The position numbers were made by a program, and so were the translations under genes. The notes below the pieces were generated by a model. It had not been told where the DNA came from, did no database searches, and saw nothing but the letters and a program-made list of their open reading frames with translations. A DNA stretch of 64,000 nucleotides from Fusobacterium mortiferum (GTDB lineage: Bacteria; Fusobacteriota; Fusobacteriia; Fusobacteriales; Fusobacteriaceae), in assembly GCF_016900045.1 (NCBI RefSeq), contig NZ_JACSNP010000005.1, positions 62,001-126,000 of the forward strand, given 5' to 3'. Below, one piece after another: positions 7,632 to 17,349 of this stretch (positions are counted from its first letter, which is position 1; every line of letters begins with the position of its first letter).

Positions 7632-7708
7632 TTTTAAAGGTAGAAATTTATGAAAAAATTTTAAAAGTTTTTTAGAAAAAAATATATTTATGATTAAAAA
7701 TTGAATGT

Positions 7709-7737
7709 TTGAAATATGAAATTAAATATGCTATAAT
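7709..7737 (+). promoter_or_regulatory. strong promoter heading the DUF116-to-dnaB gene array
   Basis: TTGAAA at 7709-7714 and a perfect TATAAT at 7732-7737 are spaced by 17 bases, and a TG at 7729-7730 gives an extended -10. It is the best promoter-like sequence ahead of the co-directional genes 7869-20988. Confidence 0.75.
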
Positions 7738-7868: not shown

Positions 7869-8402
7869 ATGAGAGGAAACTTTCTTACAAAATTAACTTA
7901 TGAAATGTATTATCTGATGTTTGCTATTTCCGAAAGAAGAAAAAAGCAAAAAGAGATAAATAATATAGCTAATAAATTTTTAAAATATAACAATGAAAGA
8001 GTTTTAAAAAGTATAGAAAAGAAAAAGATAAATAAGGTATTAATACTTTTACCTCATTGTTTACAAAGATACGTTTGTCCACTTAAAGTAACTTCAAGTA
8101 TTGAAAATTGTAAGAAATGTGGACAATGTGTGATAGGGGATTTTTTGAATATAAAATCAGAATTCCCTGTAGAGGTAAAAATAGCGACTGGGGGAACATT
8201 AGCTAGAAAACATATAAAAGATACAAGGCCAGATTTAGTTATGGCAGTAGCCTGTAAAAGAGATTTAGTATCAGGAATACATGATGCTTACCCAGTAAAT
8301 GTTTATGGAATATTTAATGAAATTCCAAATGAACCATGTATAGATACTACAGTATCTATAGAAAAGGTTAGAGAGTTTTTAAATAAGATATTTGTGGATT
8401 AG
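7869..8402 (+). CDS. DUF116 family cysteine-rich protein
   Basis: The 177-aa protein matches DUF116: VLILLPHCLQRYVCP at about residue 57, a second cysteine cluster ENCKKCGQCVIGDF, a PVEVKIATGGTLARK segment and DLVMAVACKRDLVSGI. The cysteines suggest a metal or iron-sulfur site, as inferred for the family; no reaction is established. The N-terminal 25 residues are basic and amphipathic rather than a signal peptide. It heads a long co-directional array and is followed 11 bases later by the TPR protein gene. GAGGGAGAAA precedes the ATG. Confidence 0.85.
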   Translation: MRGNFLTKLTYEMYYLMFAISERRKKQKEINNIANKFLKYNNERVLKSIEKKKINKVLILLPHCLQRYVCPLKVTSSIENCKKCGQCVIGDFLNIKSEFPVEVKIATGGTLARKHIKDTRPDLVMAVACKRDLVSGIHDAYPVNVYGIFNEIPNEPCIDTTVSIEKVREFLNKIFVD

Positions 8403-8413
8403 GAGGGGAAAAT

Positions 8414-11242
8414 TTGAAGAAGAGATATTTTTTATTAGCTCTTATGTTTGCAATGGGAGTTTCAAGTTTTGCATCTGAGAGAGATGATTTAGCCTTTGTA
8501 GATGAGTTGTATAAGCAAAAAAAATTTGATATGGCAATAGTAGAATCGAAAAGTTTTTTAGATAAGTATCCTAACTCTAAATATAATAAAAGTATTCAAG
8601 ATAGAATAGCGAAAGTATATTTTTTAACATGGGATTATCAAAATGCTATCAAATATTTTAAAATATTATTAATGAATAATGATCTAAAAGAAAAAGAGAA
8701 AAATGAAATTAGGTACTATTTAGTTAGATGTTATGCTGGAATAGGTGATAAGAAGTCTAGTGATGAATATTTAAAATTGATAGATAGTAAAAATGAATAT
8801 TATGAAAAGGCTATCTATGATACAGGAACTACTTATTTAAGTAATGAGAATTATCCATTGGCAGAAGAAGCTTTTCAAAAAGTTATAGTTTTAAATGGAA
8901 AGTATTATAATGAGGCTATATTGAGTATGGCATTATTATCATATAATAAAGGTGATTATAATAGAAGTATAGCTTATCTAAATGAATATGCACAATTAAA
9001 AGGTAAGAAAAATATGATTTTTATGAACTATCTTTTAGGATCATCATACTATAAATTAGATCAAGTAGATTTAGCTAGCAGATATTTTGAGGAAGCAGTA
9101 AAAGAAGATAAGGAGAGTCCTTATGGGAAAAAAGCTATTTTAAATCTTATAGAAATTTATAGTAATAAGGGAGAGATAGCTAAGGTAGAAGAAAAGATTG
9201 AATTAATAAAGGGAACAACTGACTATAACGAAGGAATGAGGATACTAGGAGATTCCTTTGCAACAAAGGGAGAATATAGTAAAGCGATTGAATGTTATAA
9301 TAAAACAGATGATTTTAGTAATCCTAAATTACTTTATAGTTATGGATTTTCTTTATATAAATTAGATAATTTAAAAGATGCCCAAACATATTTTGAAAGT
9401 TTAAAAAGTAGTTCATATTATAATCAAGCTATCTATTATATTTTTGCAATTGATTATAAATTAGGAAATTATAAGAAAATAATTCAAAATAGAGCAGAGG
9501 TAAAAAAAGTTAATGTTAATCAACAAGATATGGAGAATATAAATATAATTATAGCTAATTCTGCATATGAAGTTGGAGATTATAAGCTTTCAAGGGAATA
9601 CTATAGTAAAAATTACAATTTGAAGCCAAATAAAGAGAGTTTGTATAGAATAATTGTTATAGATAACAAACTAGAAGATTTAGAGGATATAAAAGCTAAA
9701 TTTTCTGAATATAAGAGTAAGTTTTCAACAGATACCCAGTATAAAAAAAATATATATCTGTCTGTAGGAGAGGTATATTATAAAAAAGGAATGTTGAAAG
9801 AGAGTTCGCAGGTATACAAAGAGTATTTAAGTACACAAAAAGATTTTGATATTTTAAATAATCTAGTTACAGTATTACTTGCACAACAAAATTATAGTGA
9901 AATGATGACTTATTTAGAAGAGGGAGATAATTCACCTAACAGTGTTTACTTAAAGGGAATAGCTTCTATGGGAATGGGAAAATACTCGGATGCAAATGGT
10001 TATTATTTAGCTGTTGAACAAGATAGTACAACTTCTCCAGAGCTAATGGAAAAAGTAAAATTTAATAAGTTAAGAAACTCTTTTCTATGGCAAAAATATT
10101 CAGATGCAATAAAATATGGTGAGGAGTATTTAACTCAGTATCCAAATGGAGAAAATAGAGCAGAGGTATTAGATAAGACAGCAATAAGTTACTTTAGATT
10201 AGACAATGTAGAAAAAAGTAAAGAGTATTACACTCAATTGCAAGGAATTTTAAATTATAGTGAGTATGCAAGCTTCCAAATAGCTGATCTTTATTATGCT
10301 CAAGGAAAATATGATGAAGCCTTAGTAAGATATAAGGAGATATTTACAAAATATCCAAATGGAATATATAGTGAGAGTGCAAACTATTGGTATTTAAACT
10401 CTTTAATAAACTTAGGTAAATTTGATGAGTTTGAAAAGGAAAAAGAGTTTTTCTTAAAAAAATATCCTAAATCTAATATGAGAGAGAGTTTATATATATT
10501 GACAGGACAGCTTTATGAAAGAAAGGGAGAGAAACAAAACTCTTTGGCTACATATGAAAAATTATATGATATATCTAAAGATACAGCTGTGAAAGAGGAA
10601 ACTGCAACAAAAATATTAGATATTCAATTGGCTACTAATAAATTGGATGAAGCAGTGAAATATATAGCTGGTATAGGAAATATAGAGATTAAAAGTTATT
10701 ATAATTCTCAACTTTATGAAAAACAAGGAAAGAAAGCTGAAGCTCTTAAAGAATATGAAACATTATTTACAGGAACTAAGTATAAGGATTTTGCTGGAGT
10801 AAACTTAGGTGATTACTATTTTAACAATAAAAACTATGAAGAAGCTAAAGTATATTATTCAGGAGTAGAGAGTTTAGAGAGTAGTCCATATAAGGATTAT
10901 GTGTTATATCAGCTTTCAAATATCGATGAGTTGGAAGGAAAAAATGAAAGTGCATTAAGAGGATATACAAAGGGGTATGTTTTATTTAATGGAGAATATT
11001 CAAATTTATCTAAATTAAAGGCAGCTCAACTAAATGAAAAATTAGGAAAAGAGGAAGATGCTATAAAGCTTTATAAAGAGTTATATTCACTTCCAAAGTT
11101 TCAGTATAGAAGTTTTATTTTGGAAAAAATGATTTTCTATACTTTAAAAAGTGGAAATAAGATAGAAGCTAAAAAATATTATAATGAGCTTCAAAAAATA
11201 GATGAACAAGCTTCGGTAAAATATAATCAATTTTTTAATTAG
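8414..11242 (+). CDS. 942-aa exported TPR-repeat protein of the TonB/ExbBD cluster
   Basis: A signal peptide (MKKRYFLLALMFAMGVSSFA) leads into an almost unbroken series of tetratricopeptide-like helical repeats, with recurring units such as YKEIFTKYPNGIYSESANYW and a Y-P-N/K-S motif typical of TPR_6 and CpoB/BamD-like proteins. It is therefore predicted to be a large periplasmic scaffold. The start is TTG 8414, supported by AGGAGGGG at 8401-8408. It is followed by a small membrane protein and then exbB, exbD and tonB, which argues for a role beside the proton-driven outer-membrane machine, as CpoB acts beside Tol-Pal. No enzymatic motif is visible. The length is unusual for a Tol-associated TPR protein. 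Confidence 0.85.
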   Translation: MKKRYFLLALMFAMGVSSFASERDDLAFVDELYKQKKFDMAIVESKSFLDKYPNSKYNKSIQDRIAKVYFLTWDYQNAIKYFKILLMNNDLKEKEKNEIRYYLVRCYAGIGDKKSSDEYLKLIDSKNEYYEKAIYDTGTTYLSNENYPLAEEAFQKVIVLNGKYYNEAILSMALLSYNKGDYNRSIAYLNEYAQLKGKKNMIFMNYLLGSSYYKLDQVDLASRYFEEAVKEDKESPYGKKAILNLIEIYSNKGEIAKVEEKIELIKGTTDYNEGMRILGDSFATKGEYSKAIECYNKTDDFSNPKLLYSYGFSLYKLDNLKDAQTYFESLKSSSYYNQAIYYIFAIDYKLGNYKKIIQNRAEVKKVNVNQQDMENINIIIANSAYEVGDYKLSREYYSKNYNLKPNKESLYRIIVIDNKLEDLEDIKAKFSEYKSKFSTDTQYKKNIYLSVGEVYYKKGMLKESSQVYKEYLSTQKDFDILNNLVTVLLAQQNYSEMMTYLEEGDNSPNSVYLKGIASMGMGKYSDANGYYLAVEQDSTTSPELMEKVKFNKLRNSFLWQKYSDAIKYGEEYLTQYPNGENRAEVLDKTAISYFRLDNVEKSKEYYTQLQGILNYSEYASFQIADLYYAQGKYDEALVRYKEIFTKYPNGIYSESANYWYLNSLINLGKFDEFEKEKEFFLKKYPKSNMRESLYILTGQLYERKGEKQNSLATYEKLYDISKDTAVKEETATKILDIQLATNKLDEAVKYIAGIGNIEIKSYYNSQLYEKQGKKAEALKEYETLFTGTKYKDFAGVNLGDYYFNNKNYEEAKVYYSGVESLESSPYKDYVLYQLSNIDELEGKNESALRGYTKGYVLFNGEYSNLSKLKAAQLNEKLGKEEDAIKLYKELYSLPKFQYRSFILEKMIFYTLKSGNKIEAKKYYNELQKIDEQASVKYNQFFN

Positions 11243-11254
11243 GAGGAGAATAGT

Positions 11255-11599
11255 ATGAGAAAAGCAGTAACAATATTATTTTTATTATCAGCAATGTGTG
11301 CTGTAGGAGCTGAAGAAGGGATAACAGCACTTGATAAAGAGGTACAAGGGATAAATAAAGAGCAATTAGAGATAAGAGAGATACCTACTGAAGAGGTCAT
11401 TTTAGAAGGGCAAAAAGTTGAGTCAGGAGCTATTAAAGTAACTAACGACAATTATCAAAACCAGAATCAAAAGATTAAAGTTGTACAGGGAGACAAGTCG
11501 GCTTTAGAAGATGAATTATCACAAGGTGTAGAAAAAAAATCGTTTTGGAAATATATTATAGGTGGATTAGGAGTAGTAGCTCTAATAATAGCATTATAA
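11255..11599 (+). CDS. small exported protein with C-terminal membrane anchor
   Basis: The 114-aa protein has a signal peptide (MRKAVTILFLLSAMCAVGA), a polar, Glu/Gln/Lys-rich middle of about 75 residues, and a C-terminal hydrophobic segment (YIIGGLGVVALIIAL) that ends the protein. After signal cleavage it would be a single-pass protein with its body in the periplasm. I do not recognise the family. AGGAGGAGAATAGT precedes ATG 11255, and the gene sits between the TPR and exbB genes, so a coupling role in that complex is possible but unproven. Confidence 0.75.
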   Translation: MRKAVTILFLLSAMCAVGAEEGITALDKEVQGINKEQLEIREIPTEEVILEGQKVESGAIKVTNDNYQNQNQKIKVVQGDKSALEDELSQGVEKKSFWKYIIGGLGVVALIIAL

Positions 11600-11668
11600 T
11601 ATTTGATTCATAAATTTATTTAAAATTTATTGGGAGATTGGAATAATTTTACAATATTAGGAGGAGTA

Positions 11669-12280
11669 ATGTACTATTTAACAAATGGTGGAATGCTAAT
11701 GTATGTTATACTTGCTATGTCTATAGTAGGTCTTGGGGCAGTTATTGAAAGATTTATCTATTTTAAGAAAAATGAACAAAATAATAGAAGCTTTTTAACT
11801 AAGGATATAAAAGAACAATTAGATAATAAAAAGATAAAAGAACTAGTTATTATGCTAAATAAGGAGAGATGTTCTGTTTCTAGGGTATTAAAAGAGGTAC
11901 TATATGAGCTTTATAGAAATCCGAATTCAACACCTGAAAAGTTAGAGGAAAAAGGAAAAGAAAAAGCTATGTTACAACTTATAGCTTTAGAGAAAAATAT
12001 GTGGATAATCTCTTTAGCTGCTCATTTAACTCCTCTTGTAGGGCTACTTGGAACGGTAACAGGTATGATTAAAGCTTTCCAAGCTGTATCTGTTCATGGA
12101 ACTGGAGATCCTTCGGTGTTAGCTAGAGGTATATCTGAGGCACTGTTTACAACTGCTGGAGGACTATTTGTGGCAATACCAGCTCTTATTTTTTATAACT
12201 ATTTTAATAAAAAAATAGAAAAGATAATATCTGATATGGAGATAACAACAACTGAACTTATAAATTATTTTAGAAAATAG
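11669..12280 (+). CDS. exbB: ExbB/TolQ proton-channel subunit
   Basis: MotA/TolQ/ExbB family protein of 203 aa that, with ExbD, converts the proton gradient into motion of TonB. Three membrane segments are visible at about residues 10-28, 112-135 and 152-175. The family core HLTPLVGLLGTVTGMIKAFQ and the following GISEALFTTAGGLFVAIPAL are intact. The start is ATG 11669, five bases after AGGAGG; an upstream TTG-initiated frame at 11630 lacks a ribosome site. Order exbB-exbD-tonB is canonical. ExbB rather than TolQ is preferred only because a TonB-like gene, not TolA, follows. Confidence 0.92.
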   Translation: MYYLTNGGMLMYVILAMSIVGLGAVIERFIYFKKNEQNNRSFLTKDIKEQLDNKKIKELVIMLNKERCSVSRVLKEVLYELYRNPNSTPEKLEEKGKEKAMLQLIALEKNMWIISLAAHLTPLVGLLGTVTGMIKAFQAVSVHGTGDPSVLARGISEALFTTAGGLFVAIPALIFYNYFNKKIEKIISDMEITTTELINYFRK

Positions 12281-12289
12281 GAGAGTATT

Positions 12290-12721
12290 ATGAAGTTAGA
12301 GAGACGTAAGAGAAAAGATGAGTTGATGCTTGAACTTACATCACTTATAGATGTTGTATTTCTTCTATTAATATTTTTCTTAGTGGCAACTACCTTTGAT
12401 GATATGAAAGGTGGAATCAAGATTGACTTGCCACAATCAACAATAAAAGAGGTATCAGAGGTAAAAGAGGTACAAATTGTTGTAGATAAAGATAAAAATA
12501 TGATACTTAACTATAAGGAAAATGGTAAGAAAGAGCAAATAAGTGTAACTACTGAAAATCTAAAGGAAAAACTAGCAGAAAAACTATCTGAATCTCAAGA
12601 GAGAAACGTAATTATAAGTGCAGATAAAAGATTAGATTATGGATATATAGTAGAGATAATGACTATATCAAAGGAAGCTGGTGCTAATTCTTTAGATATA
12701 GATACTGCTGATAAAAAATAA
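12290..12721 (+). CDS. exbD: ExbD/TolR proton-channel subunit
   Basis: The 143-aa protein has one N-terminal membrane segment preceded by basic residues. It carries the conserved ELTSLIDVVFLLLIFF motif, whose Asp is the proton-carrying residue of the family. The periplasmic part follows, with VDLP-like IDLPQ, VIISADKRLDYGYIVEIM and a terminal DTADKK. In other species ExbD forms the channel core inside an ExbB pentamer. It begins nine bases after exbB and ends ten bases before tonB, indicating one operon. Confidence 0.93.
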   Translation: MKLERRKRKDELMLELTSLIDVVFLLLIFFLVATTFDDMKGGIKIDLPQSTIKEVSEVKEVQIVVDKDKNMILNYKENGKKEQISVTTENLKEKLAEKLSESQERNVIISADKRLDYGYIVEIMTISKEAGANSLDIDTADKK

Positions 12722-12731
12722 GGAGGAGTTT

Positions 12732-13670
12732 ATGAAAAAAGAGGAAAAAATTAGTTTACTCCTTTCAGCAATAATAAATTTAGTTATAGTTTTTTTGATT
12801 CCAGGATTATCAAATAATCAAATTGAGAATAAAAAGATAAAAATAGGATTGGTAAATTATGACAATCAAAATAGAACAAAGTTAGAGGGAGAAAGAAATA
12901 GTAATAGCTCTCAAAAGAAAAATACGGAAGAGGTAAAAAAGAAAAATCCACCACCAAAAGAGCAACCTAAAGTAGAAGTGAAGACAGAGAAAAAGGTGGA
13001 GAAAAAAGTAGAGGAAAAACCAGTAGGAAAGTCTACGGAGAAGATAGATTTATCAGCTCTTAATAGTATAGCAAATAATATGTCAACTCCACAAGTACAA
13101 GTGATGACTGTTAAACATCCTGATGGAGGATATAGAGAGATAATAAAATTGGAGGCTCCTAAAAAGGAGTTACAAAGTGGAGTAGTAACAAAGGGAGGAT
13201 TAAATAAAGAAATAACGCTATCAAAGGAATTAATCTCGGTAGAGAATGAAAAATTAGAGTTAAAAGATGATAATAAAATAGCTTTTAACTCTGAAATAGG
13301 TAAGGACTCTTCTTTTGATAGGATATTAGAAATATCGGGAGAGATAGAGGGGTTACCTAGTGGTTATAAATTGGGAACAGAAGATGGAGATATAGTAGCT
13401 AAATGGGATAGTGGTAATAAGGAGCCTGTATATCCAGAATCAGCCCAATTAAAAGGGTTACACGGTAGTGTAAAAATTAGAATGAACATTGATGAAAATG
13501 GGAATGTTAAGGAGCTTAGACTTGAAAGAGGAAGTGGTGTTCCTGAAATAAATAATGCAATTGAAGAAGTGGGAAGAACTTGGAAAATTTATTTGAGCAA
13601 AAATGGACTTAGTGTAAAAGGAGATGTAATATTAGAATATAATTTTACATTGAAAGGGAAAGTAAATTAG
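12732..13670 (+). CDS. tonB: TonB-family energy transducer
   Basis: The 312-aa protein has an N-terminal membrane anchor (ISLLLSAIINLVIVFLIPGL), a long Lys/Glu/Pro-rich stretch at about residues 55-100 (KKNPPPKEQPKVEVKTEKK) able to span the periplasm, and a C-terminal TonB domain: YPESAQLKGLHGSVKIRM, NIDENGNVKELRLERGSG and a final beta strand. The usual S-x-x-x-H of the TonB anchor reads S-A-I-I-N here, so the histidine is replaced by Asn. It would transmit energy to outer-membrane receptors, none of which is clearly encoded in the window. Confidence 0.88.
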   Translation: MKKEEKISLLLSAIINLVIVFLIPGLSNNQIENKKIKIGLVNYDNQNRTKLEGERNSNSSQKKNTEEVKKKNPPPKEQPKVEVKTEKKVEKKVEEKPVGKSTEKIDLSALNSIANNMSTPQVQVMTVKHPDGGYREIIKLEAPKKELQSGVVTKGGLNKEITLSKELISVENEKLELKDDNKIAFNSEIGKDSSFDRILEISGEIEGLPSGYKLGTEDGDIVAKWDSGNKEPVYPESAQLKGLHGSVKIRMNIDENGNVKELRLERGSGVPEINNAIEEVGRTWKIYLSKNGLSVKGDVILEYNFTLKGKVN

Positions 13671-13686
13671 TAAAGAGGTGGAAAAA

Positions 13687-15078
13687 TTGGTTCTTTTAGG
13701 ATTTAGATTGGAGAGAAGTTTAAAAGAGGAATTAGAGAATAATTATGAAAATGAGTTGACTTTTGCTGATAATATAAGTGATTTTATAGATTATTTGAAA
13801 AATAAAAAATATGAAGCTATTATAATTGAGGAGAAGAATTTACAAGAAGAAGCTTTAATAAATCTTATAAAAAAGGTAGGAGAGTATCAGAAAAAAGGAG
13901 TTATAATTGTTTTGGGAGAAACTTCTAATTTGAAAGTTGTAGCTGGAAGTGTAAAAGCTGGAGCGTATGACTATATTTTAAAACCTATAGAAACACCTAC
14001 TATAATAAAAATTATAGAGAAATCTGTAAAGGATTATAAACTTTTAGCTGAGAGAATAGATAAACATAAAAGTTCAGGAGATAAACTTATCGGACAGACA
14101 AAAGAGATAGTAGAGTTATACAAAATGATAGGAAAAGTTGCAACAAGTAGAGTTCCAGTTCTAGTAGTAGGAGAGAAGGGAACAGGAAAAACAAGTGTAG
14201 CTAAAGCTATTCATCAATTTAGTGATTGGTCAAATAAGCCTTTAATAAGTCTAAATTGTACATCTTTCCACAATGATTTATTGGAAAGAAAGATGTTTGG
14301 GTATGAAAAGGGAGCTTTTAAAGGAGCAGTATTTCCTCAAATAGGTGAATTAGAAAAAGCTAATGGAGGAACTTTACACTTAGGAAATATAGAATCATTA
14401 AGTCTAGATCTTCAATCTAAAGTTTTATATTTTTTAGAAGAGGGAGAATTTTTCAGAATGGGAGGAGCTGAACCTATAAAGATAGATATAAGAGTTGTAG
14501 CTACTACCTGTGAAAATTTAGAGGAATTAATTAATCAAGGGAAGTTCATAGATGAACTATATAGAAAGTTAAGAGTTTTGGAGGTAAATATTCCTCCACT
14601 TAGAGATAGAAAAGATGATATTCCTTTAATAGTGGATCATTATTTATTAGAGTGTAATGATGAGTTACATAAAAATGTTAAAGGAGTTAGTAAACCAGCA
14701 TTAAAAAAAATGATGAGATATGATTGGCCTGGAAATGTAAATGAGCTAAAAAATGCTGTAAAATCTGCTGTGGCACTTTGCAGAGGGACTTCTATATTGA
14801 TTGAGGATTTACCAAGTAATGTCTTAGGAACTAAAATTACTAAGAAAAAAGGTGAAGGACAGATCTATGATTTAAAAGAATGGATAAAATCGGAGATATT
14901 AGAATATAAAAATAATAATCAAGGTGATTATTATGGAAATATAATATCGAAAGTAGAAAAAGAGTTGATTCGTCAAGTTCTTGAGATGACTAATGGAAAA
15001 AAGGTAGAAACTGCAGAGATATTAGGTATAACAAGAAATACTTTAAGAACAAAGATGAGCAACTATGGTTTGGAGTAA
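13687..15078 (+). CDS. NtrC-type response regulator with degenerate receiver and AAA+ sites
   Basis: Layout is receiver, AAA+ domain and Fis-type helix-turn-helix (VETAEILGITRNTLRTKM), as in sigma-54 activators. Several key residues are changed. The receiver has IIIEEKN where the phosphorylated Asp is expected. Walker A reads GEKGTGKT, GAFTGA reads GAFKGA (Lys codon 14320), and Walker B reads GGTLHLGN in place of GGTLFLDE (codons 14383-14388). The arginine-finger region reads FIDELYRKL instead of FRxDLxxRL. ATP-driven activation of sigma-54 polymerase is thus unlikely, and a sigma-54-independent regulator is inferred. TTG 13687 follows GAGGTG; GTG 13678 is an alternative start. It sits between tonB and dnaX. 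Confidence 0.85.
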   Translation: MVLLGFRLERSLKEELENNYENELTFADNISDFIDYLKNKKYEAIIIEEKNLQEEALINLIKKVGEYQKKGVIIVLGETSNLKVVAGSVKAGAYDYILKPIETPTIIKIIEKSVKDYKLLAERIDKHKSSGDKLIGQTKEIVELYKMIGKVATSRVPVLVVGEKGTGKTSVAKAIHQFSDWSNKPLISLNCTSFHNDLLERKMFGYEKGAFKGAVFPQIGELEKANGGTLHLGNIESLSLDLQSKVLYFLEEGEFFRMGGAEPIKIDIRVVATTCENLEELINQGKFIDELYRKLRVLEVNIPPLRDRKDDIPLIVDHYLLECNDELHKNVKGVSKPALKKMMRYDWPGNVNELKNAVKSAVALCRGTSILIEDLPSNVLGTKITKKKGEGQIYDLKEWIKSEILEYKNNNQGDYYGNIISKVEKELIRQVLEMTNGKKVETAEILGITRNTLRTKMSNYGLE

Positions 15079-15084
15079 AAAAAT

Positions 15085-16533
15085 ATGCATATAACATTAT
15101 ATAGAAAATATAGACCTAAAAATTTTGAAGAGGTAGCTGGACAAAAAGAGATAGTAAAGACAATAAAAACATCTCTAAGAAATGGAAAAACCTCTCATGC
15201 TTATCTATTTACAGGACCTAGAGGAGTGGGGAAAACCACTCTTGCTAGACTTATAGCAAAAGGGGTAAACTGTTTAAAAAATGGAGTTACAGATGAGCCT
15301 TGTAATGAGTGTGAGAACTGTTTAGCTATAAATAATGGAACATTTATGGACTTAGTAGAGATAGATGCTGCTTCAAATAGAGGTATAGATGAGATAAGAC
15401 AATTAAAAGAGAAGATAAATTATCAGCCGGTAAAAGGAAGAAAAAAGATATATATAATAGATGAAGTACATATGCTTACTAAGGAGGCTTTTAATGCACT
15501 GTTAAAAACCTTAGAAGAGCCACCTGAACATGTGATATTCATATTAGCTACAACAGAGGCTGATAAGATATTACCAACTATTATATCAAGATGTCAAAGA
15601 TATGATTTTAAAACTTTATCATTGAATGAAATGAAGGAACAGCTTAACTTTATAGCAAAGAATGAAAGTATAAGTATACCTGATGAGGTATTGGAGTTAA
15701 TATATGAAAACTCTGGTGGAAGTGTGAGAGATGCTGTATCTATACTAGAGAGAATAATGGTAACTTGCCTTGGAGAGGATATAACACTTGATAAAAGTGA
15801 AGAGGTATTAGGAGTTACTCCGGCTAAAAAGATGGAGGAGTTTCTAAAGGAAGTAAAGAATAAAAATTATACTAACTTAGTAAAGACTTTAGATAGATTT
15901 TGGAATGATTCGGTAGAGATAGAACTATTTTTTAAAGATTTTGCTAAATATTGTAAAGGACTTATGGCAAAAGGAGAGTTAGATATAGAGAGTGGTCTTA
16001 ATATAATAGGCTGTATATTTGATTCATTAAATAAGTTCAAATATGAAGAGGACAAGAGATTAGTAGGCTATGTTATAGTGGATAATCTTTTGAAGAGTAA
16101 TTCTAAAAATAGTGAAGTAGTTATAGAGAGAGTTGTAGAAAGAGAGATACCTCAAGAAATAAAACAAGAGGTAAGTAAAAAAGAGAGATTAACAGGGCTA
16201 ACTTTAGAGAGTATAAGTAGAAAATGGGAAGAGATATTGAAGGAAGCAAAAAAAGAGAAGATAACTTTAGGAGCTTTTTTAATAGCAGCAAAACCATATA
16301 AGCTAGAAGAAGATACTCTTTATATTGGATTTGATTCAGAAAGTAGTTTTTGTAAAGAACAGATGGAAACAACTATGTATAATGATGTTTTTGTAGATGT
16401 TCTAAGAAGATTGATTGATCCAAAATTAAAGGTAAAATATATCACTATTGGAAAGAAAAAAGAGAGTGATAAGGATAGTGGAGATTTTACAAAAAAAATT
16501 GTTGATTTCTTTGGTGGAGAAATTATGGTATAA
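15085..16533 (+). CDS. dnaX: DNA polymerase III subunit gamma/tau
   Basis: Clamp-loader ATPase of the replisome, 482 aa. Walker A GPRGVGKTTLARL, the four-cysteine zinc module (NCLKNG...PCNECENC), Walker B IYIIDEVHML and the sensor/SRC region ISRCQRYDF are intact. The C-terminal part after residue 370 is short compared with tau of E. coli (643 aa). An A-AAA-AAA run at 16248-16254 lies in the frame phase required for -1 slippage, see findings. The gene begins seven bases after the regulator stop and has a weak ribosome site, suggesting translational coupling. No RecR gene follows. Confidence 0.95.
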   Translation: MHITLYRKYRPKNFEEVAGQKEIVKTIKTSLRNGKTSHAYLFTGPRGVGKTTLARLIAKGVNCLKNGVTDEPCNECENCLAINNGTFMDLVEIDAASNRGIDEIRQLKEKINYQPVKGRKKIYIIDEVHMLTKEAFNALLKTLEEPPEHVIFILATTEADKILPTIISRCQRYDFKTLSLNEMKEQLNFIAKNESISIPDEVLELIYENSGGSVRDAVSILERIMVTCLGEDITLDKSEEVLGVTPAKKMEEFLKEVKNKNYTNLVKTLDRFWNDSVEIELFFKDFAKYCKGLMAKGELDIESGLNIIGCIFDSLNKFKYEEDKRLVGYVIVDNLLKSNSKNSEVVIERVVEREIPQEIKQEVSKKERLTGLTLESISRKWEEILKEAKKEKITLGAFLIAAKPYKLEEDTLYIGFDSESSFCKEQMETTMYNDVFVDVLRRLIDPKLKVKYITIGKKKESDKDSGDFTKKIVDFFGGEIMV

Positions 16534-16545
16534 TAGGGAGGAAAA

Positions 16546-17349
16546 ATGTTTTTAATAAGTAGTACATTATCAGTAGTTCTTCTATTTATTCTTTCACTTC
16601 TTATGCCGGTAATGAGTTTTACTCTTCCTATCTATAAAATAAAGAAGATGAAGAGATTTACATCGAAAGAAAAAATAATAGTTAATATAGTGGCAATGCT
16701 ATTAATAGCTTTAATTAATCCATGGTTATTATTATTTTATATAGGTTTTTTTGTAGTTATAGAGGGATTGTATAAATATTTTATTTATAAAGGTGATAAA
16801 GTTAAGAAATTTGATAGAATAATAATTATTTCATTATTAGTAACAGTTATAATGGGGGGATTGTTATTTTTATTAAAAGATGATATAAATAATAATATGG
16901 GACTTCTCATGGAGATATATGAAAAGAATTTTCAAATAAGTAGAAGTGAAAGTTTAGAGATCTTCAATATGATAAAGGATAGTTCAATATATTATATCTT
17001 TATTTATTCTATTTTAACTGTTTTTATGATGTATGTATCTTTAGATATAAAGGATTATTCAGAATGGAAAATATCTTTTGAATGGTTATTACTATATGTG
17101 ATAGGATATTTCATAATACATCTATTTAAGATAGATAACTTTTATATTAATAACATATTTGATATAGGGGAGTGTATTTTTGTATTTTTTGGAATAAAAA
17201 CACTATATTCAATGTTTAGTAAAAAAATAAAATATAAAGGACTTTCAAATATGTTAGCTGTAACAGTAGCTTTATTATTTCCTTACGGAACTTTTTTGAT
17301 AGGGGTTTTGGGAGGATTTAAGATAGATAAAAATAAACTTGAAAAATAA
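16546..17349 (+). CDS. polytopic membrane protein, DUF2232/YybS-like by position
   Basis: The 267-aa protein has roughly seven hydrophobic segments, including residues 5-27, 45-75, 92-108, 145-165 and the C-terminal stretch ending LIGVLGGFKIDK. I recognise no sharp motif. In many Firmicutes a DUF2232 (YybS) membrane protein lies just upstream of rplI and dnaB, and this gene occupies that exact place and has the right size and topology, so membership is inferred from context. Function is unknown. GGGAGGAAAA precedes ATG 16546. Confidence 0.7.
   Translation: MFLISSTLSVVLLFILSLLMPVMSFTLPIYKIKKMKRFTSKEKIIVNIVAMLLIALINPWLLLFYIGFFVVIEGLYKYFIYKGDKVKKFDRIIIISLLVTVIMGGLLFLLKDDINNNMGLLMEIYEKNFQISRSESLEIFNMIKDSSIYYIFIYSILTVFMMYVSLDIKDYSEWKISFEWLLLYVIGYFIIHLFKIDNFYINNIFDIGECIFVFFGIKTLYSMFSKKIKYKGLSNMLAVTVALLFPYGTFLIGVLGGFKIDKNKLEK

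What the first reader, a model, noticed from the sequence alone, without database searches (positions are those of the whole stretch)
13687..15078. NtrC-type regulator that has lost its phosphorylation, ATPase and sigma-54 contact residues
The domain order is that of a sigma-54 activator, yet the expected Asp of the receiver is Glu, GAFTGA is GAFKGA, the Walker B Asp-Glu pair is Gly-Asn (14383-14388), and the two arginine-finger positions are Ile and Lys. Losing all of these together while the Fis-type DNA-binding end stays intact suggests selection for a different role, such as a sigma-70-dependent regulator or a DNA-bound scaffold. The gene sits between tonB and dnaX, so the target may be the envelope cluster.
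Basis: partly seen in the sequence, partly recalled or inferred. Interest (0 to 1): 0.6.

Follow-up and report, generated by a model that had tools for sequence, protein, structure and literature searches.

The report
NtrC-like regulator with dead ATPase
A gene regulator that in most bacteria drives a special transcription machine by burning ATP has, throughout one family of fusobacteria, lost every residue needed for that job yet stays tightly conserved and survives even where the special machine itself has been lost, so it must now work in another way.

Summary
The gene at 13687-15078 (X) has NtrC-type domains, but Walker B Asp-Glu is Gly-Asn, GAFTGA is GAFKGA, both arginine fingers and the sensor-2 Arg are gone and the receiver Asp is Glu; Walker A and the DNA-reading helix are intact. 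This is neither sequencing error nor decay: 51 distinct orthologues in one family lack both Walker B acids (0 of 51) while keeping the Walker A Lys and the recognition helix (51 of 51); dN/dS is 0.03-0.07, and X is the most conserved gene of its exbB-exbD-tonB-X-dnaX cluster. A syntenic orthologue in a sister family is fully canonical and branches first; intermediates suggest stepwise loss. Of 13 near-complete genomes without rpoN, 11 keep X although nearly all other activators are gone; in one, X is the only such protein left. So X can act without sigma-54. Best reading: a DNA-binding, ATP-binding but non-hydrolysing regulator at sigma-70 promoters, comparable to Rhodobacter NtrC or VpsR. Its targets are unknown; binding at its own operon's promoter is a guess. 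A 2011 paper had already suggested sigma-70 dependency for a Fusobacterium nucleatum activator with GAFE.

The parts
13687..15078 (+). X, NtrC-like regulator without ATPase residues (463 aa, TTG start; in-frame GTG at 13678 is a less likely start)
13687..14046 (+). degenerate receiver domain; E48 (13828-13830) at the usual Asp position, Lys99 kept
14170..14193 (+). Walker A GEKGTGKT, intact (Lys in 51 of 51 orthologues)
14311..14328 (+). GAFKGA in place of GAFTGA
14374..14400 (+). degenerate Walker B LHLGNIESL; Gly-Asn at 14383-14388 in place of Asp-Glu
14548..14568 (+). arginine-finger positions: Ile288 (14548-14550) and Lys294 (14566-14568)
14740..14742 (+). sensor-2 position: Asn352 in place of Arg
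14935..15075 (+). Fis-type helix-turn-helix, the most conserved part (recognition helix TRNTLR in 51 of 51)
7709..7737 (+). sigma-70-like promoter TTGAAA-17-TATAAT, TG before the -10, at the head of the gene run
7688..7718 (+). 31-bp conserved block overlapping the -35, once in the own genome; candidate operator (unproven)
7869..8402 (+). DUF116 gene, first gene of the run
8414..11242 (+). TPR protein
11255..11599 (+). small 114-aa protein that fills the TPR-exbB gap
11630..12280 (+). exbB/tolQ-type gene
12290..12721 (+). exbD/tolR-type gene
12732..13670 (+). tonB-type gene
15085..16533 (+). dnaX, 6 bases after X

Best explanation
X is a former sigma-54 activator of the NtrC kind that became a sigma-54-independent transcription regulator in one family of fusobacteria. 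It binds DNA through its conserved Fis-type end as a dimer or higher oligomer, its AAA domain probably still binds ATP but cannot hydrolyse it, and it activates or represses promoters of the housekeeping (sigma-70-type) RNA polymerase by contact or occlusion rather than by remodelling a sigma-54 complex. Shown here: loss of the residues, its age and purifying selection, survival without rpoN, kept DNA-reading helix, predicted fold kept. Inferred: ATP binding, lack of hydrolysis, oligomeric state, sigma-70 promoters as targets, autoregulation of its own operon.
For: Walker B Asp and Glu absent in 51 of 51 orthologues of the family, first finger Arg absent in 51 of 51, second absent in 41 of 51, sensor-2 Arg absent in 42 of 51, Walker A Lys in 51 of 51, TRNTLR in 51 of 51; the canonical residues are present in 69 of 69 outside relatives. 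dN/dS 0.03-0.07 against six relatives; X is the most conserved of eight cluster proteins in 5 of 5 comparisons. X is kept in 11 of 13 near-complete genomes without rpoN, where Sigma54_activat proteins fall to 1-3 (median 2, against 4.5 with rpoN). The canonical syntenic orthologue L061 is the first branch of the X clade, which has support 100/100. The model of the AAA part fits active NtrC1 at 1.4 A over 246 residues. The gene run has a conserved sigma-70-like promoter and no sigma-54-like site above chance.
Against: No target site was found. A scan for the recalled NtrC palindrome gave no exact match among the rows shown and nothing evidently conserved in 12 genomes. Four of 51 orthologues still have the Thr of GAFTGA. 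The genus of the window keeps rpoN in 12 of 12 genomes, so there a sigma-54-linked role, such as competing with active activators for sites, is not excluded. ATP binding was not measured.
Confidence: 0.7

Rival explanations
1. X is an inactive partner subunit: it forms mixed rings with an active activator (for example the receiver-bearing paralogue Y, L004) and tunes its sigma-54 activity.
For: Y is present in most genomes that hold X, with Walker B acids mostly kept; Walker A is kept in X.
Against: X and Y are separate old clades. X lacks both arginine fingers, so it should not complete a neighbour's active site (trans role of the finger: passages of PMC7175178). In G048 (100% complete) X is the only Sigma54_activat protein and rpoN is absent; G097 likewise.
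Confidence: 0.1
2. X is a sigma-54 antagonist: it occupies enhancer sites of active activators and represses sigma-54 promoters.
For: rpoN and active-looking activators exist in the own genome; the DNA-reading end is the most conserved part.
Against: X persists in 11 of 13 near-complete genomes without rpoN, so this cannot be its general role.
Confidence: 0.1
3. X is a DNA-bound architectural or replication-linked protein, tied to its neighbour dnaX rather than to transcription.
For: 6-base spacing to dnaX and linkage in 55 of 57 loci; constraint stronger than on dnaX.
Against: In two genomes of genus g12 X follows tonB but dnaX is not within 3 kb; the family's DNA-binding end is that of regulators; X is absent from two genomes with dnaX in place.
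Confidence: 0.08
4. X is a decaying pseudogene or an assembly error.
For: Many motif losses together.
Against: Open frame in every orthologue examined, same substitutions in 51 distinct sequences, dN/dS about 0.03 among close relatives.
Confidence: 0.01

Closest known systems
Rhodobacter capsulatus NtrC
   Same: NtrC-type protein that lost the sigma-54 loop and activates the sigma-70 polymerase; needs ATP binding rather than hydrolysis (read in passages of PMC10274813).
   Different: Lost GAFTGA by deletion and needs receiver phosphorylation; its Walker B and fingers were not inspected here. X keeps the loop length but lost Walker B, fingers and sensor 2.
Vibrio cholerae VpsR
   Same: Atypical activator at sigma-70 promoters that needs neither ATP nor phosphorylation (passages of PMC10274813); matches the X model over 354 residues (PDB 7v2b).
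   Different: Binds cyclic di-GMP (entry title); distant in sequence (27% in the structural alignment); no ligand is known for X.
TyrR / DhaR / HupR
   Same: Activator-like proteins with defective GAFTGA, held not to be sigma-54 activators (passages of PMC3162934).
   Different: TyrR keeps Walker B Asp-Glu and the fingers (recalled, not checked); X has a receiver domain and scores better to the NtrC model than to the TyrR model (342.9 against 194.3 bits).
Caulobacter NtrC
   Same: Receiver-AAA-HTH protein without GAFTGA acting at sigma-70 promoters.
   Different: Walker A and Walker B residues are required there; X lacks the Walker B acids.
Fusobacterium nucleatum ATCC 25586 putative EBP with GAFE (Francke et al. 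2011, PMC3162934)
   Same: Activator-like protein in a genome without sigma-54, for which sigma-70 dependency was proposed (passages); perhaps an orthologue of X, since Glu is the commonest residue there (22 of 51).
   Different: That paper held it to be a PhhR orthologue; the word Walker does not occur in its main text. Identity with X was not tested.

Membership tests
NtrC-type sigma-54 activator (bEBP) | receiver, Sigma54_activat AAA domain and Fis-type HTH in order | tested here: met
NtrC-type sigma-54 activator (bEBP) | GAFTGA loop for sigma-54 contact | tested here: not met
   GAFKGA in the window; Thr in 4 of 51 orthologues
NtrC-type sigma-54 activator (bEBP) | Walker A Lys for ATP binding | tested here: met
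   51 of 51
NtrC-type sigma-54 activator (bEBP) | Walker B Asp-Glu for ATP hydrolysis | tested here: not met
   0 of 51; 69 of 69 in outside relatives
NtrC-type sigma-54 activator (bEBP) | two arginine fingers | tested here: not met
   Ile and Lys
NtrC-type sigma-54 activator (bEBP) | rpoN in the same genome | tested here: inconclusive
   present in the own genome; absent in 11 near-complete genomes that hold X
NtrC-type sigma-54 activator (bEBP) | ATP hydrolysis and ring assembly | not testable with these tools
   needs biochemistry
sigma-54-independent bEBP homologue (R. capsulatus NtrC, VpsR, TyrR group) | homologous AAA and HTH domains with impaired sigma-54 loop | tested here: met
sigma-54-independent bEBP homologue (R. 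capsulatus NtrC, VpsR, TyrR group) | function without sigma-54 | tested here: met
   indirect, by presence only: kept without rpoN in 11 of 13 near-complete genomes
sigma-54-independent bEBP homologue (R. capsulatus NtrC, VpsR, TyrR group) | regulates sigma-70 promoters | not testable with these tools
   needs ChIP-seq or in vitro transcription
phosphorylated response regulator | acidic pocket, phospho-accepting Asp and Lys | tested here: inconclusive
   Lys kept; Asp is Glu in the window and Asp in part of the orthologues; no acidic pair after the first strand, also in canonical L061 (the pocket rule is recalled)

The most novel reading that the evidence does not exclude
X is the first clear case of a pseudo-AAA+ transcription factor: an activator stripped of hydrolysis, fingers and sigma-54 contact that senses ATP by binding alone and acts as a widely used, near-essential regulator of sigma-70 promoters in a whole bacterial family, with living intermediates that record the order of conversion.
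Probability: 0.3. Interest if true: 0.75.

Novelty: new variant of a known kind. Interest (0 to 1): 0.55.

Why it matters
It gives a stepwise record of how a sigma-54 activator turns into a sigma-54-independent regulator, with intact, intermediate and fully converted forms at one syntenic place, and a natural experiment (loss of rpoN) showing that the converted form stands alone. It also warns that 'sigma-54-dependent regulator' labels on these genes in fusobacteria are probably wrong.

Tried and rejected
A mixed-ring partner role with paralogue Y was considered and set aside because G048 and G097 hold X alone without rpoN. A PhhR/TyrR relation was considered and not supported. The promoter of the gene run was examined for an operator: a 31-bp block next to the -35 is found once in the own genome (up to 3 mismatches) and in one more of the 13 genomes searched, where it is identical; it is recognisable by eye, to varying degree, in the 9 same-genus loci aligned with the window but not in the 8 loci of other genera, so it could equally be just the promoter. 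The NtrC palindrome scan and the sigma-54 promoter scans (1 match against 1.04 expected in L178, 14 against 10.6 in the window) gave nothing. Seven paper searches listed no study of this gene; only listings were seen except for the passages cited, and the library holds open-licence papers only. The VpsR and R. capsulatus originals are not held, so they are cited through PMC10274813.

Full report
What is there. The window belongs to a 2.04-Mb genome of 283 contigs. At 13687-15078 lies X, a 463-aa protein with receiver, AAA sigma-54-interaction, lid and Fis-type HTH domains. Its best NCBIfam model is NtrC, far below that model's cut-off (342.9 against 558.6 bits). It is in one run on the + strand: DUF116, TPR protein, a small 114-aa protein, exbB, exbD, tonB, X, dnaX, an unknown gene, the gene for ribosomal protein L9, dnaB.

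Motifs. Walker A is intact; Walker B LDE is LGN; GAFTGA is GAFKGA; the fingers are Ile and Lys; the sensor-2 Arg is Asn; the receiver Asp is Glu. The other activators of the same genome are not like this: L002 and L003 have D-E, GAF[TS]GA and both fingers, and L004 (paralogue Y) has D-D, GAFTGA and both fingers. In 69 of 69 activator relatives outside the phylum, found with the X profile, the Walker A, Walker B, GAFTGA Thr, finger and sensor-2 columns are canonical.

Orthologues. A search of 98 genomes of the phylum finds X or a lineage of it in 57 of the 64 genomes that hold any such activator. Of the 57 loci, 53 have tonB before and dnaX after X; L041 and L043 show tonB only, and L044 and L065, cut at contig ends, dnaX only. 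Of 51 distinct rows of the window's family, leaving out the divergent genus g10, none has the Walker B Asp (48 Gly, 3 Ala) or Glu (50 Asn, 1 Ser); the first finger is Ile in 50 and Ser in 1; the second is Lys in 40, Arg in 10, Thr in 1; sensor 2 is Arg in 9; the Thr of GAFTGA is present in 4; the Walker A Lys and TRNTLR are present in 51. The new motif is itself conserved (Glu236 and Leu238 in 51 of 51), which points to a new constraint rather than drift.

History. The X clade has full support against Y and the other activators. Its first branch is L061, in another family, with the same exbB-exbD-tonB-X-dnaX order and canonical GAFTGA, LDE, both fingers and sensor-2 Arg. L062 has lost GAFTGA, the Walker B Asp (Glu) and one finger; L063 and L064 are long, unsure branches with other degenerate motifs. 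L053, L054 and L051, the next branches, have lost the Walker B acids and the first finger but keep the second finger and the sensor-2 Arg; most of the rest have lost these too. So hydrolysis and sigma-54 contact seem to have gone first. The order is read from the tree by eye; no ancestral reconstruction was run.

Selection. Pairwise dN/dS is 0.029-0.073 against six species of the genus (Nei-Gojobori, synonymous sites partly saturated). X is the most conserved of eight proteins of the cluster in 5 of 5 comparisons, for example 95% against 75% for DnaX and 66% for TonB in G020. Within X the HTH is the most conserved part and the receiver the least.

Independence from sigma-54. By both the DNA-binding and core-binding domains of sigma-54, 13 of the 53 activator-bearing genomes at least 90% complete lack rpoN. 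X is present in 11 of them, in nine genera; Sigma54_activat proteins number 1-3 there (median 2) and 3-21 (median 4.5) in the 40 with rpoN. The comparison is not corrected for relatedness. In G048 X is the only one left. The two exceptions (G039, G040) have tonB directly before dnaX, with X cleanly gone and Y kept. Two rpoN-bearing near-complete genomes show no X: G012, where dnaX was not found either, and G051, where dnaX has other neighbours.

Structure. AlphaFold gives mean pLDDT 81.7 and pTM 0.65. The AAA part overlays active NtrC1 (1ny6) at 1.4 A over 246 residues, and the whole chain resembles NtrC1, NtrX and VpsR; whole-chain rmsd values above 10 A suggest different domain placement. 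So the fold is kept. The model says nothing about ATP binding.

Targets. The gene run starts from a conserved sigma-70-like promoter (TTGAAA-17-TATAAT with TG, 11 of 12 matches, the best of 98 in the scanned 15 kb). A conserved block overlaps its -35. Autoregulation there is a testable guess.

Literature. Francke et al. 2011 (PMC3162934; passages read) noted that F. nucleatum ATCC 25586 has a putative activator but no sigma-54, with Glu in place of the Thr of GAFTGA, and proposed sigma-70 dependency. This anticipates the core idea for one strain. Loss of Walker B, fingers and sensor 2, the stepwise history, the synteny and the rpoN test were not seen in the listings of seven searches. Passages of PMC10274813 and PMC7175178 give the comparison cases.

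Verdict. I rate it a new variant of the known sigma-54-independent activator homologues.

Noticed in passing
L004:1078-2463 and L066-L078: Paralogue Y (receiver-AAA-HTH) follows, in L004, a gene that looks like a site-2 protease of the RseP kind (by eye). It mostly keeps the Walker B acids and both fingers, but the Thr of GAFTGA is often Leu or Pro, and it is kept in rpoN-less genomes of g7 and g8. It may be a second sigma-54-independent regulator.
   Followed up: partly
window 11255-11599: Small 114-aa protein with a signal-like start and a C-terminal hydrophobic stretch between the TPR gene and exbB, recognisable in the 14 loci aligned; no family was sought.
   Followed up: partly
window 16546-17349: 267-aa protein between dnaX and the L9 gene without a Pfam or NCBIfam match, kept in synteny (27-40% identity) in many loci.
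   Followed up: no
L064, L065 (genus g10): Another degenerate X lineage with IKKV or IKEV at Walker B and no GAFTGA-like loop, on a very long branch; possibly an independent conversion.
   Followed up: partly
L041:4417-5631: An integrase-like gene (by eye) on the other strand directly follows X in L041 of genus g12, where dnaX is not next to X; mobile DNA may have split them.
   Followed up: no
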